Of a DNA stretch of 34,722 nt, positions 542 through 34,722 are shown one piece after another. Each line of letters begins with the position of its first letter. The first letter of the stretch is position 1. Source of the stretch: Clostridia bacterium (GTDB lineage Bacteria; Bacillota; Clostridia; Christensenellales; Aristaeellaceae). The notes beneath the pieces were generated by a model. The model saw nothing but the letters and a program-made list of their open reading frames with translations, was not told where the DNA came from and did not search any database. The position numbers were made by a program, and so were the translations under genes. Location: positions 1-34,722 of the forward strand of contig JAFTPN010000075.1 in NCBI GenBank assembly GCA_017463245.1, given 5' to 3'.

Positions 542-623
542 CGTGCATCAGATGAGCCTCCGATGTACACTGTTATTTTAGCATACAGGTTTCCTTCTGG
601 CAAGACAAAAAGGAGGAATGTAT

Positions 624-1640
624 GTGAATGGTAACGCTTTTGAACAAATGAAGAATGGATTCCTGGTGGAGTTGGAGCGGTGTATGCCTGGGCTGGATGG
701 CAGTGATGTGGCGTGCATCCTGGGCGCATTGGAGCGGGCTGCTTTTCCGTATGAGGTGCAGCTGAAGGAGGTTGCGTTGACGGCCTATGTGGATCCTGTG
801 CCGCAGCTGCTGAAGGTCTATCTGGCAGTGAAGAAAACGGAGGGGCTTGCGGCTGGCACGCTGGAAAACTACAAGAGGATCCTGACGCGGTTCTTCCTGT
901 GGGTTCGCAAGCAGCCGGCTGAAGTGGTATCGAATGACATTCGCATGTTTATCTATGAATACCAGCTGCAGCATGGGATCAGCGACAGGACGCTGGACAA
1001 ATACCGTGAGATTATTTGCTGGTTCTTCAGCTGGGCGCATATGGAGGAATATTTGCAGCATAACCCTGGGCGTGCGATCAAACCTATCAAGCACGAAGTG
1101 CGGGAGCGTCAACCTCTGAGCCAGGTTGAACTGGAATATCTGCGCATGGCCTGTGAAACAAAACGGGAACGGGCAATGCTTGAATTCATGTATTCGACTG
1201 GCTGCCGTGTGACAGAGCTGACGACTGTTAAGCTGGACGACATAGACTGGCGCAAGGGCACAGTGCATCTGTTCGGTAAGGGGAAGAAGCATCGCACGTC
1301 GTTCGTGAATGCAAAGTGTGAAGTGGCTCTGAAAGAGTACCTGAAAACGCGGGATGATGATTGTGAATATCTGTTTGTAACGCAGCGCAAGCCGTATCGC
1401 AAGCTAACCAAGTGTGCGGTGGAGAAGGTCGTGCGACTGCTGGCAGAGCGGTCGAAGGTGACCAAACATGTGACGCCGCATGTGTTGCGTCACACAACGG
1501 CGACAACGGCTGTAAACGCCGGAATGCCCATCGAGGACGTGTCGAAGCTGCTGGGACATTCGTCGCTGAATACAACGTTGATCTATGCAAAGGTAGCCAC
1601 GAACCGGGTGCAGACGGAGCACCTGCGCTGCGTGGTATAA
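624..1640 (+). CDS. Tyrosine recombinase (XerC/D-like integrase)
   Basis: A 338-residue site-specific recombinase. The N-terminal half (residues about 60-155) is a SAM-like core-binding domain; the C-terminal half is the catalytic domain. Catalytic residues are visible: Arg195 in TGCRVTEL, the beta-hairpin lysine in GKGKKHR (about 219-222), His286 and Arg289 in HVLRH, His312 in LLGHSSLN and nucleophile Tyr321 in TLIYAKV. GTG 624 is chosen because AGGAGG (611-616) lies 7 bases upstream of it; ATG 618 in the same frame would leave only one base of spacing. It integrates or excises DNA, probably the phage genome. Oddly, a second integrase of a different family lies convergently just downstream. 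A hairpin terminator follows at 1646-1671. Confidence 0.92.
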   Translation: MNGNAFEQMKNGFLVELERCMPGLDGSDVACILGALERAAFPYEVQLKEVALTAYVDPVPQLLKVYLAVKKTEGLAAGTLENYKRILTRFFLWVRKQPAEVVSNDIRMFIYEYQLQHGISDRTLDKYREIICWFFSWAHMEEYLQHNPGRAIKPIKHEVRERQPLSQVELEYLRMACETKRERAMLEFMYSTGCRVTELTTVKLDDIDWRKGTVHLFGKGKKHRTSFVNAKCEVALKEYLKTRDDDCEYLFVTQRKPYRKLTKCAVEKVVRLLAERSKVTKHVTPHVLRHTTATTAVNAGMPIEDVSKLLGHSSLNTTLIYAKVATNRVQTEHLRCVV

Positions 1641-1900: not shown

Positions 1901-3496
1901 TTAAATTTGTAACCACTTTTTTGATGAATCAAAAGTATCAGAAGTAACAGATAAATAGCAGGGTGGTTTTTCTTTTTTTCGTATTCGCCGTTGGACTATG
2001 GCAATTATGTGTGTAGTCCTCATCTCCACATTACAATCGCCAGTCAGGGAAAAACTGTATTCGGTGGAACTGACTGCGATTGTCCCGAATGCCGCTTGCA
2101 GAAGGGTTTGCACTTCTGTGGGCGGCATTTCTTTTGCCCGTTGGAGAGCATTGGCGGCTTGGAGAATTGTCCGGGAAGAATACGGCCGTTTCGGCTCCAG
2201 GGCGCGCATCCGCTGCCGAATGGTGTTCTGCTCCTGCTCCAAGCGGTTGATCTCGGTGAGGACGGCAGCGGGCGCCGGGGCGCTGGTGCTGCTGAGCGCG
2301 TTGGTGAGATTGCCGATCTGGGTGGAGAGTGTGGTGAGGATCTGATTGAGGCGTGAGATCTCCGGCGACTGCTGTTCATCCTGAGTGGTGGAGAGCTGGT
2401 TGGCGACCTCGCAGGCGCGCTCGATCAGCTCGGGGGAGCGGGCCAGCTCATCCAGGACGGAAAAGGCTGCTTCCTCGATCTTCTCTTTTCTGGCGGGCGG
2501 GACACATCCGTGTTTACAGGTGTAGTACCGCTGCCGGGTTCCGTTGCGATCGGTGCCGCCGCAGTTGACAATCAGCGGTGTGCCGCAGACTGCGCACCGG
2601 CATAGGCCGGAAAGCAGGAAACGGGCGCGGGTGGACTGCCGACCGGAATAGATCCGGTTCTCTGCGCGGATGGCGCAGGCAGCTTCCCATACATCCTGGG
2701 TGATGATGGCCGGAATGCCGCCGGGGATCCGGATGACCTGAGATGGATCCTTCAGGCGGGAGGATGAGCGGTGGCCGCGGGCATCCGCTGCGGCGAGACG
2801 GTTGTGGATGTAGGTACCCACATAGCGCTCGTTAGAGAGAATGTAGTTCAGGGAGTTTTTGCCGTAGGGATTCCCCTTGATGGTGCGCAAGCCTGTGCCG
2901 TTGAGATATTCCAGCATGGGGGTGTAGCCGATGCGGGAAATATACATGTCGAACAGCTTGCGGACGATGGGGGCGGTGGCCTCGTCGATGTGGTAGTGTC
3001 CATCCACGATGCGGTAGCCCAGGGGAACCGGCCCGCCCAGGAATCGGCAATCTTTGGCCAGGGACTGGTGCACCATGGCGACCCGCTCGGAATCCTGCTC
3101 ACGTTCAAACTGGGCAAAGGTACCCAGCACGGAGAGCATGGCGCGGCCGCCTGGGGTGGACGTGTCGATGGATTCGGTGGCGGAGATCAGGGTGACACCG
3201 TTGGGGTTGAAAATGTCCTCGATGATGGTGAGAATGTCGCGCAGAGATCTGGAAAGACGATCCAGCTTCCAGACCATGACCACATCCACCGTACCCTCGC
3301 GGCACTCCTGCAGCAGCTGCTGGATGGCGGGGCGGTTGAGGGACTTGCCGGAATAGCCATCGTCCACGTAGCAGGTGAAATCGTCGTAGCCTTTGATGGT
3401 GGCTTGCGCTTCGAGGATCTTCTGCTGCGCTGGGATGGATTGCCCGTTTTTTGCCTGTTCATCGGTTGACACGCGGGCGTAGCCGCGGATGACCAT
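1901..3496 (-). CDS. Large serine recombinase (integrase)
   Basis: A 531-residue serine recombinase. The N-terminal resolvase domain (residues 1-150) carries the nucleophile Ser10 in YARVSTDEQ and the VWKLDRLSRS motif at 75-84. The recombinase domain spans about 155-270. A zinc ribbon follows with Cys301, Cys304, Cys327 and Cys331. A coiled coil covers about 370-435, with a further C-terminal extension. This is the full architecture and length of phage and ICE integrases such as the phiC31/TP901 class, which recombine attP with attB and need a directionality factor to excise. The ATG has a good ribosome site (AAAGGAGG) upstream on the minus strand. It looks intact. Sharing the region with a tyrosine integrase is unusual; one of them may serve a task other than prophage integration. 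Confidence 0.95.
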   Translation of the reverse strand: MVIRGYARVSTDEQAKNGQSIPAQQKILEAQATIKGYDDFTCYVDDGYSGKSLNRPAIQQLLQECREGTVDVVMVWKLDRLSRSLRDILTIIEDIFNPNGVTLISATESIDTSTPGGRAMLSVLGTFAQFEREQDSERVAMVHQSLAKDCRFLGGPVPLGYRIVDGHYHIDEATAPIVRKLFDMYISRIGYTPMLEYLNGTGLRTIKGNPYGKNSLNYILSNERYVGTYIHNRLAAADARGHRSSSRLKDPSQVIRIPGGIPAIITQDVWEAACAIRAENRIYSGRQSTRARFLLSGLCRCAVCGTPLIVNCGGTDRNGTRQRYYTCKHGCVPPARKEKIEEAAFSVLDELARSPELIERACEVANQLSTTQDEQQSPEISRLNQILTTLSTQIGNLTNALSSTSAPAPAAVLTEINRLEQEQNTIRQRMRALEPKRPYSSRTILQAANALQRAKEMPPTEVQTLLQAAFGTIAVSSTEYSFSLTGDCNVEMRTTHIIAIVQRRIRKKEKPPCYLSVTSDTFDSSKKWLQI

Positions 3497-16550: not shown

Positions 16551-17741
16551 ATGCCCGCATTTGCCAACATGACTGCGCTGATGGAAGCGATCAACGAGAT
16601 CCAGCGCGACATTCCCACCCTGCGCGACAACGCGCTGAACCTGGCCAAGGATAAGAACGCCGACATGGCGGCTGTCCGCAAGGCCAAGGCGGCCTATGAG
16701 GACGCCAACACCCGCCTGTCCATGCTGAACGAGGAAAAGGAACGCATGGAAGATGAGGCCACCTTCCGCCTGCGTAAGAAGCCCGGCGGCGCTGCTATGA
16801 GTAAGAACGAGGCCCGCGGCCTGTTCTACCAGATGGCCTTCAACGGCGGCGACACCACCAAGATGCCCAAGATGGCCTATGAACAGCTGGGCCTGATCCC
16901 TGCTGACAATGCCGATCAGGGCCACGGCAGCCTGCTGGTGCCTGAGACCATGGCCAATGAGCTGCTGCTGGCTCCCCAGGTGACCAACCCCCTGCGTGAG
17001 CTGATGACTGTGACCATGGTGCCCAACCTTGAAATCCCCCGCCTGGGCTTTGAACAGGATGATGATGGCTTCCTGGACAAGGACGGCGCCAGCGCCAAGG
17101 AACTGGCCCTGAAGGGCGACCTTGTGGGTTTCGGCAATCATGCGTACCGCGTTCGTGCTTCTGTTTCTGAGAGCATCATCCGCACCACGCCCCTGAACAT
17201 CCAGTCTGCGGTGGACGCTGGCCTGGCCAGCAGTGCTGCCCGCAAAGAACTGAAGATGATCTTCGGTGAAGATCTGGCTGCCAATGTGAAGCACATGAGC
17301 CTGTACCAGAAGGGTGCTGACGGCGAGTATGTGATCGCTGCTAAGGAAGGTGGCGACCTGTATACTGCCTGGTGCGCTGCCTTCGGCGATCTGGAAGATG
17401 AGTACCGTGAGCGTGCTGCCGGTGTGCTGCGCTTCAGCGATTACCTGAAGATGCTGCGTGCCATTGCCCCCAACGCCAACCTGTTCGACGCCGCCCCTGA
17501 GAAGGTGCTGGGCATGAAGGTGAAGTTTACCGAGCGTGCTGCCATGCCTGTGGTGGGTGACTTCAAGATGCTGCACCTGAACTTCGCCTGCGCTCCCTGG
17601 TATGACGTGGAGAAGGTGCACGACAAGGGCCTGCGCCGCTTCTACCTGAACAGCCTGTACGACATCCAGGTGAAGATGGCCAGCGCCTTCCGCCTGGTGA
17701 AGGTGACCGAGGGCGCTGCTGACGCTGCTGACGCGGAGTAA
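16551..17741 (+). CDS. Major capsid protein (HK97 fold, with scaffold domain)
   Basis: 396 residues. Residues 1-80 are a charged coiled coil acting as the internal scaffold (delta domain). The capsid domain follows, with GSLLVPETMANELLLAPQVT, MTVTMVPNLEIPRL and VSESIIRTTPLNIQ. The codon usage is visibly different from neighbours (many GCC, AAC, CTG and AAG; few GCG), as expected for a highly translated gene. AGAGAGGACGAG precedes the ATG. The upstream ClpP-like protease probably removes the scaffold. Confidence 0.93.
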   Translation: MPAFANMTALMEAINEIQRDIPTLRDNALNLAKDKNADMAAVRKAKAAYEDANTRLSMLNEEKERMEDEATFRLRKKPGGAAMSKNEARGLFYQMAFNGGDTTKMPKMAYEQLGLIPADNADQGHGSLLVPETMANELLLAPQVTNPLRELMTVTMVPNLEIPRLGFEQDDDGFLDKDGASAKELALKGDLVGFGNHAYRVRASVSESIIRTTPLNIQSAVDAGLASSAARKELKMIFGEDLAANVKHMSLYQKGADGEYVIAAKEGGDLYTAWCAAFGDLEDEYRERAAGVLRFSDYLKMLRAIAPNANLFDAAPEKVLGMKVKFTERAAMPVVGDFKMLHLNFACAPWYDVEKVHDKGLRRFYLNSLYDIQVKMASAFRLVKVTEGAADAADAE

Positions 17742-19934: not shown

Positions 19935-19964
19935 GCAATATGAGAGGTGAAAGGAGGTGGCGGA

Positions 19965-22085
19965 GTGATATGCGTTTATGACGGGCGGGACGCAGAGCGC
20001 GGCGGGCATGGCCTGGGAGTGATCCATCCGAGCGAATGTATCATTACGGAGGAGACCGGCGGCAGCTATGAGCTGAGTGCGACGCTGCCCCTGGGTGGTG
20101 AATGGCTGCTGATGGAGCGGGGCAATGTGGTCCGTGCGCCGGGCGCGCCGCACCGGCTGAGCGGACAGGTGCAGGACTTCCGCATCTATGGGGTGGAGCT
20201 GGCGGAGGATGGGCGATCCATCCGGGTGCAGGCCAGGCACGTTTTTTATGATGCGGCAAATGCCTTTGTGCAGGCGCCGGTGGAGTTTGACGCCGCTGGT
20301 GTACCGGCTGTGCTGGAAGCCATGGGTGCGGCAGGCGAAGGTGTGCCGTATGCCCTGGATGTGCAGACGGGGGATGCGACCTATACGGGGAGCATTGACC
20401 TGGTGAACTGGGTGAATGCGCTGCTGGATCCGGACGCGGGTATCGTTGCTCAGGCGCGGTTGCGGCTGGAAAGAGACTGCCTGACGGTGCGCTTGCGGCC
20501 TGAAGGTGGCGACGACAGCAGGCTGACGGTACGCTGGGGGCGAAACATGGCCGGGCTGACCCGCAGCACGATGATCGATCAGGTCGTGACGCGCCTGCAG
20601 CCGGTGGGCGAAGATGCTGAGGGCAATCCGGTATACCTGCCTGAAAAGTACGTTGACAGCCCGCGTATTGGCGAATATTGGCGGCCGCTGGTGAGTGTGT
20701 GGCGTGTATCCGGCGCGAAGGTTGGCCAGCGGACGCACGATGCGGACGGCAACACGGCGGAAATGACGCTGGAAGATGTGCACAACATGCTGCGCAAGGC
20801 TGCCCAGGAGCGCCTGCAGAGTGGATGTGACCTGCCTAAGGAAAAAACATCGCTGGCGTATGTGGATATGAACCGGATCGGCGCTGCGGATGCTGCATGG
20901 GCAGCGGCGCATGTGTGCTTGTATGACTGGTTGACGATCGTCCACGGGCCGGCTGATGTGCGTGAACAAGTGCAGGTGACCGGGTATAGCTGGGACGTGC
21001 TGCGGCAGACGTATACGCAGTTGGAGGTGGGTGATGCCTTCCGCGACCGGACGGACACGGTGATTGTGACTGCGCCGCAGCTGAGGAAAGAGGTTGCGGC
21101 TGCGAGGAAAAACAGTCTTCGGGTGGAAGATCTGATCGATGTGGAAGCAGAAAAGATTCGTTTGCAAGCGCGGGATATCGAGCTGATCGCTTATGACGTG
21201 AAAGACCTGGATAGCCGTACAAGTTCAGCTGAACTCCGACTGGATGGCATGGATGGGCAGATCACGGCTTTGGGTACGGATATAAGCGACCAGGGCGATG
21301 TGATCAGTCAGGTGTTGCTGGATCTTAATGCAGCGGAAGCGGATATTCTGCTGAAGGCGGAGCGGACGGAGCTGGATGCGCTGGCAACTCGGGTTAGTAG
21401 TGCGGAGATCTCACTGGATGCTGTGGAAGCTGAGGTGGTACTGAGGGCGCTGAAGGATGACGTGGAGGCGGAGTTTAAGGTGCAAAGCGACCTGATCTCT
21501 GCCAATGCGGCTGCCATAGCGCTGAAGGCTGACAAGATCGACTTGCAGGGTTTTGTGACCATGGAGGAATTTGAATCCTTTGAGGGCAGTGTTTCGGATC
21601 TGTGGGCAGATGAACTCAAAACGCTTTATGTCGGCGCTGAAAGTGTCGTAGCCGGATATGGTGATTTTGATAATCTTGTATTCGGTGCAATCAATGGCGA
21701 AAGCTCTGATGTGTGGGTGGGTGAGATTGTTTCGGGCTTGGGCTATGCCACCCAGGCCTGGGTGAATGGCAAAGGCTACGCCACGCAAAGCTGGGTTAAT
21801 AGCCAGCAATTCGACACAGTAGGAAGCGTGAATACCAAGGTCAACAGCCTCAGCAATTGGGTGCTTGAAAACTACCCCACGAAAATCTGGGTCAACGCGC
21901 AAGACTATATGCCCAAGAGCGGCCTGACCACCGCCACCACCAAGGTCTGCACCGGCACCCAATACACCACCGCCACCACGCCGCCCTTCTTCAACGCCAA
22001 CGGCACCCAGGTGTCCGGCGGCATCACCTACGTCAAAAGCGTTACTTATAACACTACCGAACTGACCTATTTGGTCTATGCATAA
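19965..22085 (+). CDS. Tail-associated lysin/baseplate hub (Tal) with C-terminal fibre
   Basis: 706 residues from GTG 19965, with AAGGAGG 7 bases upstream. The N-terminal part (about 1-380) matches the minor structural protein/hub family: CVYDGRDAERGG, ETGGSYELSATLPLGGEW, WVNALLDPDAG, and ADVREQVQVTGYSWDVL near the end. It sits below the Dit ring at the tail tip. Residues about 385-560 are a heptad-rich coiled coil. The C-terminus (about 580-706) has GYATQ-WV repeats typical of fibre tips, and its base use changes to C-rich codons after about 21880, suggesting separate acquisition. No peptidase motif is evident. The gene is placed before the tape measure rather than after Dit. Confidence 0.8.
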   Translation: MICVYDGRDAERGGHGLGVIHPSECIITEETGGSYELSATLPLGGEWLLMERGNVVRAPGAPHRLSGQVQDFRIYGVELAEDGRSIRVQARHVFYDAANAFVQAPVEFDAAGVPAVLEAMGAAGEGVPYALDVQTGDATYTGSIDLVNWVNALLDPDAGIVAQARLRLERDCLTVRLRPEGGDDSRLTVRWGRNMAGLTRSTMIDQVVTRLQPVGEDAEGNPVYLPEKYVDSPRIGEYWRPLVSVWRVSGAKVGQRTHDADGNTAEMTLEDVHNMLRKAAQERLQSGCDLPKEKTSLAYVDMNRIGAADAAWAAAHVCLYDWLTIVHGPADVREQVQVTGYSWDVLRQTYTQLEVGDAFRDRTDTVIVTAPQLRKEVAAARKNSLRVEDLIDVEAEKIRLQARDIELIAYDVKDLDSRTSSAELRLDGMDGQITALGTDISDQGDVISQVLLDLNAAEADILLKAERTELDALATRVSSAEISLDAVEAEVVLRALKDDVEAEFKVQSDLISANAAAIALKADKIDLQGFVTMEEFESFEGSVSDLWADELKTLYVGAESVVAGYGDFDNLVFGAINGESSDVWVGEIVSGLGYATQAWVNGKGYATQSWVNSQQFDTVGSVNTKVNSLSNWVLENYPTKIWVNAQDYMPKSGLTTATTKVCTGTQYTTATTPPFFNANGTQVSGGITYVKSVTYNTTELTYLVYA

Positions 22086-22577: not shown

Positions 22578-25500
22578 ATGGGCGTAAGACTTTCTAATAT
22601 TGTGCTGAGGGTGGATGGCGGCGATAAAGCGCAGAAGACGCTGAATGACGTGAGTCGCGCGATGAGCCTGAACCAGATGGAGCTGAAGAAACTGGAAGCG
22701 GCCTATGGCCATAGCAGCAAGGATATGGACTACCTTGCCCAGCGCAGCGACCTGCTGAAGACCCGTTTGCAGGAGCAGGAAAAGGCTACGGCAGCCCTGC
22801 GGGAGACCCGAGAGAAGTACCTCGCGACCGGCAAGGCGAATCAGGATCAGCTGGACAAGCTGGACAAGCAGATCTTGCAGGCGGAAACCTCCGAGGCTCG
22901 GCTGGGGCGCCAGATCAGAGAGTGCGAGGGTGAGCTGAACAAGCAGCGCGCTGCGGCTGCGCAGGCGTCTCAGGCGCAGGAGAAGCTGGGGAAGACTGCC
23001 CAGGTGGCTGCTCAAGGTCAAAAAACGCTGGGAGAGGCTGCCAAGGCCGCGGGAAACGATGCAGACAATGCTCGGGCAAAGTGGAACAGCTTTATGGACA
23101 CGCTGGAGAAGCGCGGCGCCAAGGTCGAGAAGGTTGGCAAGGCCATGACGAAGGCTTTGACCATTCCAATCCTGGGAATGGGCGTGGCCAGCGGTACATA
23201 TGCGGTGCAGTTGGAAGATGCGCTGTATGAGACGGCTACGCTGCCGGGCTTTTTGAGCGGAACGGCAGAGCAAAAGCAGGAGCAGCTGGATGCGTACCGT
23301 GCGGCGCTGCTGGCAGGCAGCAACCACAGCCATACGGATGTGAATCAGTTGGCCAGCGCACAGTATCAGGCGATCAGTGCGGGCGTTACTCCGGAGGATA
23401 GCGCCTACTGGGCGGAGCGGGCTGCCATGGCTGCCAAGGCGGGCAAGAGTGACGCCCTGACGGTGGTGGATGGCGCCAGTAGTGTGGTGAACGCCTGGAA
23501 GGAGGCTTCTGGCGGGCTGGATCATGTGCTGGATGTGATGCTGATTGCACAAAACTTTGGCAAAACTGACGTGGGTCAGCTGGCCAGCCAGGTGGGCCAG
23601 GTGACGGGCATGGCGCCTCAGGTGGGCGTGGGCATGGAAGAAGTGTTTGCTTCCATCGCTGCCATGACGCTGGGCGGTATGAGTACCAGCGGCAGCGTGA
23701 CCGGCCTGAAGGCCGTGATGAGCAGCGTGATCAAGCCGACGGCAGAGGCCAGAGAAGAGGCAAAGAGGCTTGGCTTGGAGTTTAATACTACCGCAATGCG
23801 AAGCAAGGGATTGACCGGCTTTTTGGCTGATGTTGCGGAGAAAACCGGCATGAACGTTGATAGCCTGGGTAAGCTGTTTGGCTCTGTGGAGGGCTTGAAT
23901 CAGGTGCTGGCGCTTGGAACCAGCCAGGCAGGCGCCTATGCGGATGTACTGGGGCAAATGCGGGCTGCCAGCGGTGTGCTGGATGAGGCTTTCGAGACCC
24001 GTGTGAGCAGCCGGGCGGAGAGGCTGAGTGGATCGTTGAATCGGCTGAAGAACGCTGGGGCGGAGTTGGGCGAAGCCTTCCTGCCTGCGGTGGACATGGC
24101 TGCGGATGTGCTGGGCGGTGCTGCGGATGCCATCAGCGGTATGGACGAAGGCGCACAGAAAACGGTGATCGGGCTGGGGCTTGTAACGGCTGCGGCCGGC
24201 CCTGCCACCCGGGCAGTAGGCGCGCTGATGAAGAATATCAAAACCATTGCTTCCCTGGCGTCGAATCCCTGGGTATTGGGTGCGGTGGGGATCGGAGCAA
24301 TCGCGTGGGCGCTTTCCAGCGTCGAAACGGATGCGGAACAGCTGGAAAGGGTGTTGGGAAGCCTGAATGCGAACCTGTCGCCCGAAGCGCAGCAGAACAT
24401 CACGAATGGGATCAACGCTGGCATTGAGGCGGCCAGGAAAGACTTTGAGATCGAAGCGAAGGCCAAGGTGACGATGGACGGTGAAGCCATGCGCGCGGAA
24501 CTGCAGGGGCTGGTGAATGATACCCTGGATGATGGGGAGCTGAGCTTTGGCGAATACAGCAGCTGGCAAGCCTATGTGGAAGGCAAGCTCACGCCGGATG
24601 CGGCTGCTGGATTGAAGAGTGAAGCTACGGCGGACATTGCTGCAGAGTTGACCGCTGCGATCGGCGACATGAACAAGCTGCTGGAAGTGGTGTACCGTGC
24701 CGGCAATACGGCTACGGCGCAGGAGATTGCTGATCTTCAGACGGCCATTGAAAAGGTGCGTTCGTTGCATGAGGAAATGGATGCGCTGCGGGCTGAGATC
24801 GAAGCCGGTGAAGCTGCGAACGTTGACACTCAGGGCGATGCAGGTGAGGTTGTGGCTATGGGTCTGAGTTTGGCAGGCCAAGCAGCTGAGGCTGTGGGCT
24901 ATACTTCCGAAAAGTCTACCAAGCTGCAGGAGGCGATCGAAGCGGAGCAGAAAGAGGCGGAAGAGATCTACACGGCAGCGGTACTTGCTGCTGAGAATGA
25001 AGAACAGATCCAGGCGGCGAAGGATGAATTGGCAGCTGTGACTGCTGCCCATGAAGCTGCTCGTGAGAATGTGACTGCTTCTGCTACGGGTAGCTATGCG
25101 GCGCAATGGGCAGGCCTGGTGCAGCAGCACCCGGAAGCCTGGGCGCAGCTGCAGCCAATAGCGCAGATGCTGGACGTGCTGAGCGCCCTGGGTGCATCGA
25201 TGGACAGCAACAGGCCCGCCAGCGATGCTGTGCAGCGCATTCCGGCGGGCCTGTTGGGGTCACTGGGCTACGACTGGCTGCAGGATGAAAATGGCCTGAT
25301 GGATGTGTATATGGTTAATCAGAGTGGCGGCCTCACTATGCTGTATGATGCGATGATGACGCAGATGGATGAAGCGGCTGCGGGGGTGGATGCAAACCAC
25401 AATCCGCTTATTGAGTGGATGCAGGCGATGATTGACCAGGGCGTGGATCCTGCAAGCCTGGACACGGGTGCCTTGAGCCAGGACATGGCGGATGTGCTGC

Positions 25501-25976
25501 GATTGGTGATGGCCATGCAGGACAAGGACAACATTGGCACCGAGGCCATGGAGAGCCTGAGCGCCGGCATGAAGGAAGGCGCTGAAGGTGTGGAAGAAAC
25601 GGCTGATGAGATCGGCGATGGGGTTGAAAGCAGCCTCGCAGCGCCTGCAAAGGTGGCCAGGGGCGCCGGACAGGGCGCAGCTGACAACCTGGCGCAAGGC
25701 CTGGCCGCCGGTACGCCTGCAGCCGCTGCAGCTGCTGCAAGGTTGGCCGGCGCGGTGAGCGCTGCGCTGCAATTTGTGATGCCGGGCGCCGGGATCGAGA
25801 CTGGTGTCGGAACGCTGGCGGCCGGGGCTGTGACGAACAACAACAGCACCGACAACAGCGTGAACGTGACCATTCAGAGTGCGACCATGGGCAGCACGCA
25901 GCAGGCGAATAACCTGGCTGATCGGCTGGCCGCCTATGGCCGGATGAAGAATGCAGGCGTGGGGCTGAACGGCTGA
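22578..25976 (+). CDS. Tail tape measure protein
   Basis: 1132 residues, the longest gene. Residues about 20-190 are long coiled coils. A hydrophobic region starts near 195 (LTIPILGMGVASGTY), followed by the conserved tape-measure block (ALYETATLPG; DVGQLASQVGQVTGMAPQVG; GMSTSGSVTGLKAVMSSVI), a second hydrophobic segment (residues about 560-580, WVLGAVGIGAIAWAL) and Ala-rich helices to the end. It fixes tail length and helps DNA ejection; about 1130 residues predicts a tail of roughly 150-170 nm by the usual 0.15 nm per residue rule. It stands alone between two terminators. Confidence 0.93.
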   Translation: MGVRLSNIVLRVDGGDKAQKTLNDVSRAMSLNQMELKKLEAAYGHSSKDMDYLAQRSDLLKTRLQEQEKATAALRETREKYLATGKANQDQLDKLDKQILQAETSEARLGRQIRECEGELNKQRAAAAQASQAQEKLGKTAQVAAQGQKTLGEAAKAAGNDADNARAKWNSFMDTLEKRGAKVEKVGKAMTKALTIPILGMGVASGTYAVQLEDALYETATLPGFLSGTAEQKQEQLDAYRAALLAGSNHSHTDVNQLASAQYQAISAGVTPEDSAYWAERAAMAAKAGKSDALTVVDGASSVVNAWKEASGGLDHVLDVMLIAQNFGKTDVGQLASQVGQVTGMAPQVGVGMEEVFASIAAMTLGGMSTSGSVTGLKAVMSSVIKPTAEAREEAKRLGLEFNTTAMRSKGLTGFLADVAEKTGMNVDSLGKLFGSVEGLNQVLALGTSQAGAYADVLGQMRAASGVLDEAFETRVSSRAERLSGSLNRLKNAGAELGEAFLPAVDMAADVLGGAADAISGMDEGAQKTVIGLGLVTAAAGPATRAVGALMKNIKTIASLASNPWVLGAVGIGAIAWALSSVETDAEQLERVLGSLNANLSPEAQQNITNGINAGIEAARKDFEIEAKAKVTMDGEAMRAELQGLVNDTLDDGELSFGEYSSWQAYVEGKLTPDAAAGLKSEATADIAAELTAAIGDMNKLLEVVYRAGNTATAQEIADLQTAIEKVRSLHEEMDALRAEIEAGEAANVDTQGDAGEVVAMGLSLAGQAAEAVGYTSEKSTKLQEAIEAEQKEAEEIYTAAVLAAENEEQIQAAKDELAAVTAAHEAARENVTASATGSYAAQWAGLVQQHPEAWAQLQPIAQMLDVLSALGASMDSNRPASDAVQRIPAGLLGSLGYDWLQDENGLMDVYMVNQSGGLTMLYDAMMTQMDEAAAGVDANHNPLIEWMQAMIDQGVDPASLDTGALSQDMADVLRLVMAMQDKDNIGTEAMESLSAGMKEGAEGVEETADEIGDGVESSLAAPAKVARGAGQGAADNLAQGLAAGTPAAAAAAARLAGAVSAALQFVMPGAGIETGVGTLAAGAVTNNNSTDNSVNVTIQSATMGSTQQANNLADRLAAYGRMKNAGVGLNG

Positions 25977-28819: not shown

Positions 28820-30502
28820 ATGCCTGTATCTATTTTCGAGGGGAACAAAGCCGAGCGTGTTGCTAAAGCCCTGGAGCGTCTGGCTGGTAACTCTCGTATC
28901 GACCAGACCTTTGAGGCCCTGCTGGACGGCACCAACACCAGCAAGATCTTCGGCCAATGGTGGCCGATCAGCGGCGAGGGAACGGATAGCCGCTACACCC
29001 GCCTGGAACGCTGGTTTTCCATGCTGGCGCGGTGCTGGGCTGGCAAGACCTACACCGTGCGCTGGAATGACTGGCGTGTGAGCAACGACCCCAAGGGTAC
29101 GCCCCTGGCCGACCTGGCCGACAAGGCTCCGGCTGGGTGCTACACGGAAACCGATGCCAACACCCCCGAATGGTGCGACGAGGATCCCATGACCTGGTAC
29201 GTCCGAGCCAATGCCATCAGCTTGGCAGATGGCACCATGCACATTCTGGCGGTGGAAGGTGTCGATCCTGGCTTTGATGTCAGCGGCAACATCGCCCCTG
29301 TGTACACCTTTAGCCTTGCGCTGTGGATGGCGCACTACACCGACGGCACCCATGAGTACAAGACCTGGGCGACCACCCAGCAGGGCGGTATGCGCCCCAT
29401 GGCCTGCGACGTGGCTCCCGACAACAGCAAGCGCATCATGACCTGGCACGCTTCCTTTGGCGGCAGCATGACCGCCGACGGCAAGCTGACCTCCGGCGTG
29501 GGCAATCAGCCCGCTTTCCGCGTGAGTGCCACCGCTGGCCTGACCGCCGCCCGTAAGTGGAACGCTTATGAGGGCACCTACTCCGATACCGACCGCGATC
29601 ATCTGCTGAATATGTGGCAGCTCCGGCACTTTAGCCTGGAGAACTCCGGCGAGCTGGAGGGCTGCCTGAGTTACACCTGGCAGTATACCGTGGCCATGGC
29701 CGAGGATGGTGTGACCAGCGTATTGGTGACTACGGCGCAGGCGGCCTCCATCCTCATTGGCAGCTCTGTGGAGCTGGGCAGCCATCCCGATGGTACGGAC
29801 AGCGACCGTAACACCGCCGCAAACCGTGACCTGATCGCCTACGCCAAGGTGGAACGCATCGAAACCGTGACCATCGACGGCGCGGAGTACGCCCGTGTGC
29901 ATCTGGGCATTGTGGAGCCGGTGGACATTCCTGCCACCGCGCTGCTGTCCAGTATGCCGTGGGAACCTGGCAGCACCGAGCGACTGCCTGGGCGCAAGGA
30001 TGGCAGCTTGTATAGCTGCACCAACGGCAAAACGCCTGCCCGTATCGCTGGCATTGAGGTGCTGGACGGTGCCTATGCGGTCGGCCTGGATCCCCTGTGG
30101 ATGAGCGACTACGACGAAAGCCGTACGCCCCAGAGCATCTACACCGTATACCAGTGCCGTGATAGTGAAAAGCAGTCCTCCTCGACTACCAACTATGAGG
30201 AGGTCGGCACCTTCCAGAGCGCGACCGCTGGCTGGCACTACGTCAAGCGTTTTGCCATCCGCAAAGACGGAATGCTGCTGCCGGAAGCCCTGGGCGGCTC
30301 CAGCACCACGGGCATGAAGTCTGCTTTCCGCTTCAACGCGTCCTCCGGCGTTCGCTGCCTGTGGTGCTTCGGCGCTTTGAACTTTGGCGGCAATGGCGGC
30401 GTTGCCTACGCGTATGGCAGCTACGGTCCTGGCACTGCGCACTGGTACGGGCGGCCTCGGCTTTCTGGTGCTGGGAAAAAGCGGGGTGAATGGGCGGCGT
30501 AA
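28820..30502 (+). CDS. DGR target: variable receptor-binding tail protein
   Basis: 560 residues, ATG 28820 behind AAAGGAG. Residues 1-60 are a helical attachment segment, followed by a large beta domain. The C-terminal 60 residues carry the variable repeat (codons from 30320, residue 501 on), with GVRCLWCFG, GGNGGVAYA and the WYGRPRL end typical of C-type-lectin-fold DGR targets. Twelve residues differ from the template-encoded version, nine of them at Asn (AAC/AAT) template codons, which cannot mutate to stops. By position it binds the host surface at the tail tip. The stop codon lies in the loop of an 8-bp hairpin. Confidence 0.92.
   Translation: MPVSIFEGNKAERVAKALERLAGNSRIDQTFEALLDGTNTSKIFGQWWPISGEGTDSRYTRLERWFSMLARCWAGKTYTVRWNDWRVSNDPKGTPLADLADKAPAGCYTETDANTPEWCDEDPMTWYVRANAISLADGTMHILAVEGVDPGFDVSGNIAPVYTFSLALWMAHYTDGTHEYKTWATTQQGGMRPMACDVAPDNSKRIMTWHASFGGSMTADGKLTSGVGNQPAFRVSATAGLTAARKWNAYEGTYSDTDRDHLLNMWQLRHFSLENSGELEGCLSYTWQYTVAMAEDGVTSVLVTTAQAASILIGSSVELGSHPDGTDSDRNTAANRDLIAYAKVERIETVTIDGAEYARVHLGIVEPVDIPATALLSSMPWEPGSTERLPGRKDGSLYSCTNGKTPARIAGIEVLDGAYAVGLDPLWMSDYDESRTPQSIYTVYQCRDSEKQSSSTTNYEEVGTFQSATAGWHYVKRFAIRKDGMLLPEALGGSSTTGMKSAFRFNASSGVRCLWCFGALNFGGNGGVAYAYGSYGPGTAHWYGRPRLSGAGKKRGEWAA
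30319..30466 (+). repeat. DGR variable repeat (VR)
   Basis: 148 bp matching 30595-30742. All 119 positions that are not A in the template are identical; 16 of 29 template A positions are changed (for example 30605, 30606, 30614, 30650, 30651, 30659, 30660). Changes yield C, G and T. The invariant GCGGCCTCGGCT near the 3' end (30451-30462) is the probable initiation-of-mutagenic-homing region. Confidence 0.98.
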
Positions 30503-30510
30503 GCCGCCCA
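30491..30510 (+). other. Hairpin behind VR (DGR target recognition element)
   Basis: TGGGCGGC (30491-30498) pairs perfectly with GCCGCCCA (30503-30510) around the loop GTAA. It begins 24 bases after VR. In the Bordetella phage DGR a similar hairpin with a 4-nt loop just behind VR strengthens target recognition. Here the loop contains the gene's TAA stop codon. Confidence 0.75.
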
Positions 30511-30511
30511 G

Positions 30512-30528
30512 AGGGGCGAAGGGCCCCT
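30512..30528 (+). terminator. Second hairpin behind the target gene
   Basis: AGGGGC (30512-30517) pairs with GCCCCT (30523-30528), loop GAAGG, followed by the weak ATATTG. It may be a weak terminator or part of the DGR structure. Confidence 0.5.
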
Positions 30529-30562
30529 ATATTGACTGAATCTCCTACCTGTGAATGAAAAG

Positions 30563-30578
30563 GAACCCGAAAGGGTTC
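30563..30578 (+). other. GAAA-tetraloop hairpin upstream of TR
   Basis: GAACCC, GAAA loop, GGGTTC, then GGGGTTTT; it lies 17 bases before the template repeat. It could be a terminator, or a structured 5' portion of the template RNA. Confidence 0.6.
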
Positions 30579-30594
30579 GGGGTTTTATGGCATG

Positions 30595-30742
30595 GTCTGC
30601 TTTCAACTTCAACACGTCCTCCGGCGTTCGCTGCCTGTGGTGCTTCGGCAATTTGAACAATGGCGGCAATGGCGGCGTTGCCTACGCGAATGGCAACAAC
30701 AGTCCTGGCAATGCGAACTGGAACGAGCGGCCTCGGCTATCT
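30595..30742 (+). ncRNA. DGR template repeat (TR) RNA
   Basis: The 148-bp donor copy. In the target's reading phase it is rich in AAC/AAT codons at the variable sites (13 such codons). The reverse transcriptase copies this RNA with errors at adenines, and the cDNA replaces VR. An open frame runs through it (30551-30829), but only because it mirrors the target gene; it is not a protein gene. Confidence 0.96.
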
Positions 30743-30968
30743 TTGGCATTACCAGCCTTTGGGTTGGTAACGCAAGGCAGGAAGTCCTGTCTAATATGCC
30801 ATAAAGTCCTCCGCGTGAAAATCGACTAATACCAGCACGGCCGAAAGGTCAGGCGCGGCGCATCGGCGACCGCGTGGGGTGAGTAGTAGAGAGGTCTGCC
30901 TGATTCGTAAGGCGTGATCTAACCGAAAGCCCCTGAGTCCAAAAGAAAACATCAGGAGGTGTATCGAG
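30743..30968 (+). ncRNA. Noncoding spacer between TR and RT, probably part of the template RNA
   Basis: 226 bp without a supported gene. It is rich in short complementary segments and ends in AGGAGGT, the ribosome site of the RT. In studied DGRs the RNA downstream of TR is needed for priming and binding by the reverse transcriptase and Avd. No avd gene lies here or between VR and TR. Confidence 0.6.
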
Positions 30969-32276
30969 ATGGCGCGGTTATACAATCACCTTACAAGCGA
31001 TCTGGCCTACTGCGCTGTATCGAAATGCCTGGAGCATAAATGGCGCAGGAACGATGTCCAGACCTATATCGAGGAATGGACGGGGTATTCCAGAAAAGAG
31101 CTGTACGCAGATGAGATCGCCCACAAAGGACTGTCCGTCGGCATGAAGTACAACATCATCTGTGAGCTTGCCTGCGCTGCGGAGGATATGGTGGACGGGA
31201 TCATGCACGGCATCGACCCAGATCTCGACCCCGTATCCGTCCGCGAAAAACCTGATGGTGCTACTGGTAAAATACGCCGCATTGCATATCTGTGTATGCG
31301 GCATCAGGTATTAGGGCATTTGGTCAAATTGGGGATCGAGCCGCTGCTGAATGCGCGGCTGCTGCCCACGCAACACGCCAGCATACCAAGCAAAGGCCAG
31401 ACGGGCCTTGCAAGGCAAGTCGAACGGATGCTTAACCGCAAGCTGGGCATCAAAATGTATGTGAAAACAGATTGCACATCGGCCTATGCGTCGGTGATGT
31501 ACAGCCTTTGCATCGACCTCATCAAGAAAGAGATCCCACGGGCGAAATGGATCCTCGCTTGTCTGCGAGTGCTGGAACGCTATGCGCCCGACGGCCACCT
31601 CATCATCGGTGGTTATCTGGACGCATGGCTGTTCAACTTTGTAATGAGCTATGCGCTGCGGTATGTCCTCAGCCTCAGTAAGAGCCGCAGGGATAACAAA
31701 TACCCTCTGGTGATCCGCGCTGGTACCTTCATGGACGATATGGTGCTGATGGGACGGTCGGAAACAGCTTTGCGGCAGGCGGTGAAAAGCCTGACCGACT
31801 GGCTGCAACGAACATTCCACATGACCATGCGCACCACCACGGCCATCATCCGGCTCTACACCGTGGAGGAAGAGAAGGAACATAAGCGCAGAGCGAGGCC
31901 GGCGGCGAGGGGCTGCCCAAGCATCGACATGGGCGGCTACCGCATCCACCGCAGCCATATCACCATCCGCAGACGCAATGTCAAGCGCATACTGCGCTGC
32001 TTCACCCGTGCCTGGACGGAGCTGCAAGCCACCGGCACCATCAAACGCCAGAGGGCTATGCAGATCATCAGCCGCAACGGCATGGTGAGCAACACCGATG
32101 CTTACAGGCTATGCCATCAATACCATGTATACGAGTTACTTAAGGTCGCCAAGCGCGTGCAAGCCTATTGGCTCCGCGTGGCCGACCGAAATAGGAAGGA
32201 GAGATTGAATAATGCTGTTAATCAACACCGAATCCACCGTGAAGCCCTCTGCCGTGTTGCTGGAGCGGCTGGGTGA
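30969..32276 (+). CDS. DGR reverse transcriptase
   Basis: 435 residues, ATG 30969 with AGGAGGT 9 bases upstream. RT motifs: YVKTDCTSAYASV (catalytic Asp168), FMDDMVLMG (Asp256, Asp257), and the preceding palm and finger blocks. It is basic, as DGR RTs are. The motif-4 segment, which normally reads [I/V/L]GxxxSQ, is here IGGYLDA (213-219), lacking the Ser-Gln pair. The C-terminal thumb is long and basic. It acts on the TR RNA just upstream. Its 3' end overlaps the next gene by 65 bases. Confidence 0.95.
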   Translation: MARLYNHLTSDLAYCAVSKCLEHKWRRNDVQTYIEEWTGYSRKELYADEIAHKGLSVGMKYNIICELACAAEDMVDGIMHGIDPDLDPVSVREKPDGATGKIRRIAYLCMRHQVLGHLVKLGIEPLLNARLLPTQHASIPSKGQTGLARQVERMLNRKLGIKMYVKTDCTSAYASVMYSLCIDLIKKEIPRAKWILACLRVLERYAPDGHLIIGGYLDAWLFNFVMSYALRYVLSLSKSRRDNKYPLVIRAGTFMDDMVLMGRSETALRQAVKSLTDWLQRTFHMTMRTTTAIIRLYTVEEEKEHKRRARPAARGCPSIDMGGYRIHRSHITIRRRNVKRILRCFTRAWTELQATGTIKRQRAMQIISRNGMVSNTDAYRLCHQYHVYELLKVAKRVQAYWLRVADRNRKERLNNAVNQHRIHREALCRVAGAAG

Positions 32277-32526
32277 CGGAAGTGCCAATGTGCGTCTTGC
32301 CGACAACATCCGCGAGGAGGCACGTGAGGGTGAGAAGGTCATCGTCTACGATGAGGTGGTTTTCACCCTGACCGCCGACCGCAAAGAAACCGCCGCTGAC
32401 ATCGAGGCCGAGTTTGCCGCCTGGTGGGCGTATGGCTCCGCACCGGAGGAGGCCGAACCCACCACCGAGGAACGCCTGGAGATCGTCGAAAGCGTCCTGA
32501 TGGATCTGATTGGAGGTGCTGTGTGA
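32212..32526 (+). CDS. Small acidic tail-associated protein (104 aa)
   Basis: ATG 32212, behind AGGAAGGAGAG, lies inside the RT gene. The product has a beta N-terminus and a very acidic C-terminus with WWAYGSAPEEAEPTTEERLE. Proteins of this kind commonly follow tail-fibre genes in clostridial phages, before an XkdX-like peptide; function unknown. The gene probably belonged directly after the fibre gene before the DGR cassette came between. Confidence 0.65.
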   Translation: MLLINTESTVKPSAVLLERLGDGSANVRLADNIREEAREGEKVIVYDEVVFTLTADRKETAADIEAEFAAWWAYGSAPEEAEPTTEERLEIVESVLMDLIGGAV

Positions 32527-34577: not shown

Positions 34578-34593
34578 AAGGAGGAAGAAGGAC

Positions 34594-34722
34594 ATGGAGC
34601 AGAATCGTTTGCTTTCCCCGGTGACGCTGGCGGCGATCGCCGCGCAGGTGCTGAGCATCCTGGTGCTGGCCGGTGTGATCGACACCGGCGTGAGTGAGGC
34701 CATCGAGGCTGTTGTTGTGGCA
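34594..34722 (+). CDS. Small holin, 5' part (duplicate of 13-141)
   Basis: The first 43 codons of the holin gene at 13-204, cut by the contig end. It is present only because of the 141-bp terminal overlap and is not a second gene. Confidence 0.9.
   Translation, partial: MEQNRLLSPVTLAAIAAQVLSILVLAGVIDTGVSEAIEAVVVA

What the first reader, a model, noticed from the sequence alone, without database searches (positions are those of the whole stretch)
28820..32276. Complete diversity-generating retroelement aimed at the tail-tip receptor-binding protein
VR (30319-30466) and TR (30595-30742) align over 148 bp with 16 differences, and every one falls on a template adenine; all 119 non-A positions are identical. 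An RT with FMDD follows. Twelve amino acids of the target's C-type-lectin-like end are changed. This is the signature of adenine-specific mutagenic homing, so the phage can retarget host receptors.
Basis: partly seen in the sequence, partly recalled or inferred. Interest (0 to 1): 0.85.

Follow-up and report, generated by a model that had tools for sequence, protein, structure and literature searches.

The report
Active phage gene-mutating retroelement, unusual enzyme
A gut phage of ruminant bacteria carries a genetic device that keeps rewriting one end of a tail protein, and its copying enzyme lacks a signature once proposed to cause the device's adenine-only errors.

Summary
In detail: VR 30319-30466 and TR 30595-30742 align over 148 columns with 16 differences, all at template adenines. 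This is a diversity-generating retroelement (DGR) that acted recently. Genome G009 holds the same 34,581-bp circular phage with three differences from the window, all in VR opposite TR adenines. In nine related IMG/VR loci with identical TR, 26 of 27 VR columns opposite TR-A vary, against 1 of 117 others.

Beyond the finding: (1) the RT's lineage has IGGYLDA, or EA, ES, SA forms, where DGR RTs usually have (I/V/L)GxxxSQ. SQ had been proposed to cause the adenine errors; this lineage makes them without it. (2) No Avd was found. (3) A stem closes TR in a loop, followed by a conserved spacer RNA; covariation is strong and Rfam has no match at gathering cut-off.

Not shown: the C-type-lectin fold (weak), receptor retargeting, and that the RNA stands in for Avd. 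New variant of a known kind.

The parts
28820..30502 (+). target (variable) tail protein, 560 aa; phrog_17147-like, C-terminal part like phrog_5302 tail protein
30319..30466 (+). variable repeat (VR), ends 36 bp before the last base of the target's stop codon
   Evidence: differs in G009:C36 at 30425, 30440, 30441
30491..30510 (+). 8-bp GC-rich inverted repeat with 4-nt loop GTAA (holding the TAA stop), 24 bp after VR; candidate DNA hairpin/cruciform for target recognition
   Evidence: DNA fold z -2.9
30563..30578 (+). terminator-like hairpin just upstream of the P1 5' arm; significance unknown
30580..30593 (+). 5' arm of stem P1 (pairs with 30796-30809); one base separates it from TR
30595..30742 (+). 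template repeat (TR)
30796..30809 (+). 3' arm of stem P1
30743..30948 (+). spacer RNA between TR and RT; conserved helices P2 (30853-30858/30870-30875), P3 (30876-30880/30929-30933), P4 (30899-30901/30910-30912)
   Evidence: model R1 matches 30791-30948 (the window is in its training set)
30969..32276 (+). DGR reverse transcriptase, 435 aa; motif 4 IGGYLDAW (residues 213-220), FMDD (254-257)

Best explanation
It is an active DGR, apparently without Avd, of a phage that is probably temperate. Shown: VR differs from TR only at TR adenines; near-identical phages differ at such positions alone; the enzyme is a DGR-type RT. Inferred, largely from the BPP-1 model: a transcript with TR and the spacer RNA folds so that stem P1 closes TR in a loop and the spacer holds the RT; cDNA is primed near the 3' end of TR; the RT misincorporates opposite adenines; copying stops at the P1 5' arm, which sits at the 5' border of TR; the cDNA replaces VR, guided by the identical GC-rich 3' end and perhaps by the hairpin after VR. 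The result is a pool of tail proteins with altered C-termini. The RT does this with motif 4 IGGYLDA in place of IGxxxSQ. The confidence given is for identity and recent activity; I put the RNA steps at about one half.
For: VR/TR pattern. Recent homing: 3 of 3 differences in 34,581 bp lie in VR opposite TR-A, and G009 carries both VR variants. Nine IMG/VR loci of the lineage (eight contigs): TR identical, VR variable at 26 of 27 TR-A columns and 1 of 117 others. Same cassette order in relatives. Repeat pairs with mismatches confined to template A in the RT-proximal copy in 36 of 43 loci; C- or T-confined pairs in 0, G-confined in 2, with the other copy as template. Closest solved structure by sequence and by fold is the BPP-1 DGR RT. 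RNA: 92.2% of cells paired and 144 doubly changed cells, against 38.5-53.8% and 18-37 when slid.
Against: No transcript, cDNA or homing was measured. The single-sequence RNA fold is no better than shuffles (z -0.9, 20 of 100 shuffles as good). P1 did not reach p < 0.05 in 4 of 29 lineage loci, and the loci aligned in A4 were chosen largely because P1 had been found. One non-A polymorphism occurs (L073/L074). L049/L050 (19 of 22 VR differences at TR-A) and L051/L060 (21 of 22) are not purely at A; their TRs differ too. The hairpin loop GTAA does not fit the published GRNA consensus, and 13 of 29 lineage loci show no perfect stem of 6 bp or more at 22-36 bp after VR.
Confidence: 0.95

Rival explanations
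1. A relic: a DGR that once worked but whose RT is dead, its motif 4 having decayed from SQ.
For: Motif 4 lacks SQ; [quoted passage not shown]
Against: VR variants in otherwise identical genomes; DA, EA, ES or SA in all 33 loci of a scan whose pattern did not touch motif 4; VR diversity among DA-type loci; intact ORF and confident model, pLDDT 92.
Confidence: 0.03
2. The VR differences between copies are assembly or strain-mixing artefacts, not homing in this phage.
For: The three G009 differences come from metagenome assemblies; contig C36 wraps the circle 1.23 times.
Against: Artefacts would hardly choose three VR positions opposite TR-A out of 34,581; separate IMG/VR contigs show the same confinement.
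Confidence: 0.03
3. Another RT system (group II intron, retron, DRT, CRISPR-associated) lying by chance beside a repeat.
For: Weak hits to group II intron, CRISPR-associated and DRT RT models.
Against: Best matches by sequence and fold are BPP-1 DGR RT; adenine-confined repeats accompany the RT in 36 of 43 lineage loci; no Rfam family at gathering cut-off in the window.
Confidence: 0.01

Closest known systems
Bordetella phage BPP-1 DGR (mtd-avd-TR-brt)
   Same: Target with VR, TR, spacer, RT in this order; adenine-only VR changes; GC-rich hairpin after VR; its RT is the closest solved structure
   Different: BPP-1 has Avd and motif IGSLTSQ; the window has none found and IGGYLDA. BPP-1 hairpin loop GAAA, here GTAA. 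Spacer model R1 finds nothing in BPP-1; a TR-enclosing stem is not significant there (p 0.8)
Gut-phage DGRs without an annotated Avd in the stretch shown (FP_Epona, crAssphage LMMB, Butyrivibrio phage Arawn)
   Same: Target, short intergenic TR, RT, no Avd annotated there; TR-enclosing stem significant in Epona and LMMB, p 0.067 in Arawn
   Different: All three keep SQ in motif 4
crAssE-Sib DGR (PMC11054128, passages read)
   Same: A DGR whose RT is said to carry GxxxSP instead of GxxxSQ and was missed by myDGR (one passage of the paper states the two motifs the other way round)
   Different: SP there; here a lineage with DA, EA, ES or SA
Faecalibacterium phage DGRs Roos and Pioen (PMC11792537, passages read)
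   Same: Phage DGRs with VR variation seen in sequencing reads
   Different: SQ-type RTs (Roos, Pioen), target with DUF6273

Membership tests
Diversity-generating retroelement | TR/VR pair with differences confined to template adenines | tested here: met
   16 of 16 at TR-A
Diversity-generating retroelement | RT of the DGR type with YxDD-like catalytic motif | tested here: met
   FMDD; BPP-1 RT best by profile (E 9e-16) and by fold (E 5e-14); in a tree with BPP-1 and other DGR RTs, but no non-DGR outgroup was used
Diversity-generating retroelement | (I/V/L)GxxxSQ in RT motif 4 (characteristic, not universal: 15 of 155 DGRs vary in PMC3521204) | tested here: not met
   IGGYLDA; IG kept, SQ replaced by DA. 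Not treated as defining, because the survey counts its exceptions as DGRs
Diversity-generating retroelement | directed, TR-templated change of VR in nature (homing) | tested here: met
   (population evidence, no experiment)
Diversity-generating retroelement | TR outside the target gene, followed by a structured spacer RNA | tested here: met
Diversity-generating retroelement | accessory protein Avd (usual, not universal) | tested here: not met
   PF22296: 0 of 9 lineage genomes or records, control Lagaffe found; NF033474: 0 of 2, but nothing rang in its controls, so uninformative
BPP-1-type target site | 7-10 bp GC-rich hairpin, 4-nt GRNA loop, 4-34 bp after VR | tested here: inconclusive
   stem and distance met, loop GTAA does not fit GRNA
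C-type-lectin-fold DGR variable protein | VR in a C-type-lectin fold at the C-terminus | tested here: inconclusive
   best PDB match is a polysaccharide lyase at E 0.019; TaqVP 5vf4 third, E 0.1-0.5 over three chains; none below 0.001; VR blocks pLDDT 43-69; no Pfam match better than E 0.017 in any of 23 members

The most novel reading that the evidence does not exclude
A deep lineage of DGR reverse transcriptases has replaced the SQ dipeptide stepwise (SQ to SA to EA/ES and DA) yet keeps adenine-only infidelity, so SQ does not set that specificity. The lineage also dispenses with Avd, its role being taken by a lineage-specific RNA that clamps the template in a loop with stem P1 and whose 5' arm ends the cDNA.
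Probability: 0.4. Interest if true: 0.68.

Novelty: new variant of a known kind. Interest (0 to 1): 0.52.

Why it matters
The 2012 DGR survey hypothesised that the SQ motif has a vital role in the adenine-specific errors. It noted that its exceptions still show adenine exchanges and that SQ may not be absolutely necessary, but could not exclude sequencing errors or very recent inactivation (PMC3521204, passages). A conserved lineage with DA and live adenine-specific diversity, and kin with EA, ES or SA beside adenine-confined repeats, argues strongly that SQ is not required. It gives a natural comparison set of enzymes for asking what does set the specificity. Motif-based detection may miss such DGRs, as reported for crAssE-Sib with myDGR (PMC11054128, passages). 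The spacer RNA and TR-enclosing stem supply a covariation-backed structure for a DGR without a detected Avd.

Tried and rejected
Relic reading: rejected. Other RT systems: rejected. Rfam: no family at gathering cut-off in the window; one sub-threshold sRNA match in 30500-30990 at E 0.16 (19 bits, cut-off 112), taken as chance. Downstream 104-aa ORF as an Avd substitute: relatives follow many RTs of the group but also SQ-type RTs L003 and L035; I suspect an XkdW-like tail protein (recall), not tested. Second VR: none in G000 or G009. Exact search for VR variants in IMG/VR: 0. RT search with the single protein in IMG/VR: 6 stretches, none confirmed; relatives came from alignments.

First scans for relatives used patterns that include motif 4, so they cannot show how constant it is; one search used a pattern from another region. 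My repeat finder extends only across template-A (or, on the other strand, T) mismatches, so adenine purity inside a pair is by construction; the unbiased tests are, and one search is the control with other bases. One search gave 60 of 117 non-A columns because L070 has a 3-nt indel and was out of register; L070 was dropped and repeats the count.

A TR-enclosing stem was sought outside the lineage: 4 of 13 distant relatives and 4 of 13 named phages with a repeat pair (four more had no pair; Arawn is in both sets) reach p < 0.05, uncorrected; BPP-1 does not (p 0.8). So such stems are not unique to this lineage. From recall, the 2025 BPP-1 cryo-EM paper describes flanking RNA that primes and terminates synthesis; it is not held, so I do not claim the stem as new.
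Full report
OBSERVATION. VR 30319-30466 and TR 30595-30742 align without gaps over 148 columns with 16 differences, all at template adenines; the 119 non-A columns are identical (hypergeometric chance 6e-14). A repeat finder that knows nothing of adenine gives the same borders. Twelve residues of the target change. The RT ORF 30969-32276 carries FMDD.

CONTEXT. The window's ends repeat over 141 bp, so the contig is a circle of 34,581 bp. It is contig C59 of a 2.7-Mb, 92-contig genome, G000. It encodes a tyrosine integrase and a tape-measure-type protein, a large terminase and tail proteins: a tailed phage, temperate by inference. The target is the last gene with tail-family matches before the RT. 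G009, of the same genus, carries the same phage. The source of G000 is not told. Close RT relatives are uncommon: of 300 genomes sampled in the family, 16 match at E <= 0.001 and 5 at 50% identity or more, G000 and G009 included.

ACTIVITY. G009 contig C36 (42,558 bp) covers the whole circle and differs from the window at three positions: 30425, 30440 and 30441. All lie in VR opposite TR adenines and change residues G536S and H541S. C149 (5,995 bp) has the window's VR. Two VR states therefore coexist in one assembly. In a cluster of ten IMG/VR loci with a DA-type RT, pairs differ at 10-21 VR positions, all or all but one at TR-A, while TR is identical over the compared stretch; the exception is L073/L074, two loci of one contig with no VR difference. 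For nine of the ten (L070 dropped for an indel; nine loci on eight contigs, eight distinct VRs), 26 of 27 TR-A columns and 1 of 117 other columns of VR vary, P 2.5e-26, relatedness not corrected for. Two more divergent pairs are less pure: L049/L050 19 of 22, L051/L060 21 of 22 at TR-A; L056/L081 (22 of 22) and L052/L001 (15 of 15) are pure.

THE ENZYME. Pfam RVT_1 E 1e-9, phrog_1423 reverse transcriptase E 6e-38. The only PDB sequence match is the BPP-1 DGR RT (E 0.002; with a profile E 9e-16). The AlphaFold model has mean pLDDT 92, and the two best fold matches are BPP-1 DGR RT entries 8ub7 and 8ubd. Motif 4 reads IGGYLDAW. In the alignment with relatives (IGSYLSQYL in L003-L005) the leading IG is kept and SQ is replaced by DA; HMMER's alignment to BPP-1 puts a gap there, so this register rests on the relatives and the conserved N223. 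A scan of viral contigs by a pattern outside motif 4 gave 33 loci: DA 28, EA 2, ES 2, SA 1. In a tree of 75 DGR-type RTs (midpoint root, no non-DGR outgroup), the DA group and the EA/ES group join with support 0.91, L108 (SA) joins them with 1.0, and SQ-bearing L034/L035 come next (0.99). Of the 33 RTs outside, 26 have SQ; the rest are SP, SH, NQ, DQ or SC. The order SQ, SA, EA/ES and DA is an inference from this tree. The 2012 survey found 15 of 155 exceptions (SP, SH, NQ, PA, AQ, VQ), noted that they still show adenine exchanges, and hypothesised that SQ defines fidelity, with the caveat of sequencing errors or recent inactivation (PMC3521204, passages). A 2024 paper reports a GxxxSP DGR (PMC11054128, passages). 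DA is not among the variants in the passages I read. One search was my only search for the motif itself (open-access library); two of its four papers (PMC12386605, PMC4244168) I did not open. So I cannot say that DA is unpublished.

NO AVD FOUND. bAvd PF22296 has no match in G000 and eight lineage genomes or records, and is found in the control Lagaffe at E 7e-15; some virus records are fragments. NF033474 gave nothing in G000 or G009, but nothing rang in its controls either. In the window the VR-TR and TR-RT gaps are 128 and 226 bp, and in most lineage loci both are under the 387 bp of BPP-1 avd. L051, L060 and L083 (581 bp) and L058 (719 bp, its RT start uncertain) are exceptions.

THE RNA. 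The TR-to-RT spacer is conserved in sequence and structure across the lineage. A stem, P1 (30580-30593 with 30796-30809), pairs the TR 5' flank with the spacer and so closes TR in a loop. A scan against shuffles finds it in 25 of 29 lineage loci at p < 0.05, uncorrected (misses L058, L080, L084, L107). In 19 of those 25 its 5' arm ends within -11 to +6 nt of the TR start; the other six have TR calls under 120 bp. On 23 loci, 22 of them chosen because P1 had been found, 28 pairs (P1-P4) are 92.2% paired with 144 doubly changed cells and 24 pairs changed on both sides. Sliding the partners gives 38.5-53.8%, 18-37 and 11-14, and 0 of 500 shuffles reach any observed value. P2-P4 were not used to choose the loci. 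A covariance model of the spacer from 20 loci was run on 39 sources. It finds the place upstream of the RT in lineage loci outside its training set: L057, L091, L106, L107, L058, and parts of L053 and L064 (cut by contig ends). Among 18 more distant DGR loci it finds 4 at E < 0.001 (SQ-bearing L034, L035, L004 and SC-bearing L007), and one at E 0.45. It finds nothing in BPP-1 and 12 other named phage records. So the RNA is probably older than the loss of SQ (inference). The single-sequence fold is not better than shuffles (z -0.9). In BPP-1 the spacer is reported to fold, recruit bRT-Avd and prime cDNA, and a motif in the avd mRNA to end it (PMC12875486, passages). By analogy P1 would mark the end of the cDNA; this is inference.

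TARGET SITE. Twenty-four bp after VR stands an 8-bp GC-rich hairpin with loop GTAA that holds the stop codon. Of 29 lineage loci, 16 (window included) have a perfect stem of at least 6 bp starting 22-36 bp after VR, with differing stem sequences; loop GTAA recurs in L063, L047, L052, L067, L069 and L084. BPP-1 homing is much weaker without its hairpin, and the published loop consensus is GRNA (PMC3240598, passages), which GTAA does not fit.

TARGET PROTEIN. The family accompanies the RT (39-60% identity to the window in alignment A6). The model has mean pLDDT 82.9 but is poor in VR. No PDB match is better than E 0.001; the first is a polysaccharide lyase (E 0.019), and TaqVP, a DGR variable protein with the C-type-lectin fold, comes third (E 0.1) with two more chains at 0.4-0.5. 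The lectin-fold claim is plausible, not shown.

VERDICT. A real, recently active DGR; the finding is correct. The novelty lies in the RT lineage without SQ and the covarying template-closing RNA. DGRs as such, phage DGRs without annotated Avd and single SQ exceptions are known.

Noticed in passing
1-141 and 34582-34722: Identical 141-bp ends: the contig is a circular phage genome of 34,581 bp.
   Followed up: yes
618-1640 (+) and 1901-3496 (-): A tyrosine integrase and a large serine recombinase side by side in one phage.
   Followed up: no
32212-32526 (+): A 104-aa ORF overlapping the RT's 3' end; relatives of it follow many RTs of this group; possibly an XkdW-like tail protein (recall).
   Followed up: partly
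30563-30581: Two overlapping terminator-like hairpins; one reaches into the P1 5' arm, so the folds may compete.
   Followed up: no
19947-22085: A gene matching tail families (PF06605 below its cut-off, several PHROGs) lies before the tape-measure-type gene 22578-25976, not after the Dit-like gene.
   Followed up: no
16637-16735 (-): tRNA-Met call antisense inside ORF 16551-17741, probably a false positive.
   Followed up: no
L073 and L074 (one contig, IMGVR_UViG_3300031853_000021): Two DGR loci about 39 kb apart on one 78.7-kb contig with no VR difference over the 103 bp compared; two phages or a joined assembly.
   Followed up: no
L039, L040, L041, L043, L036, L007: More distant DGR RTs with other motif-4 endings (NQ, DQ, SH, SP, SP, SC), each beside a repeat pair found by the adenine-confined search.
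   Followed up: partly
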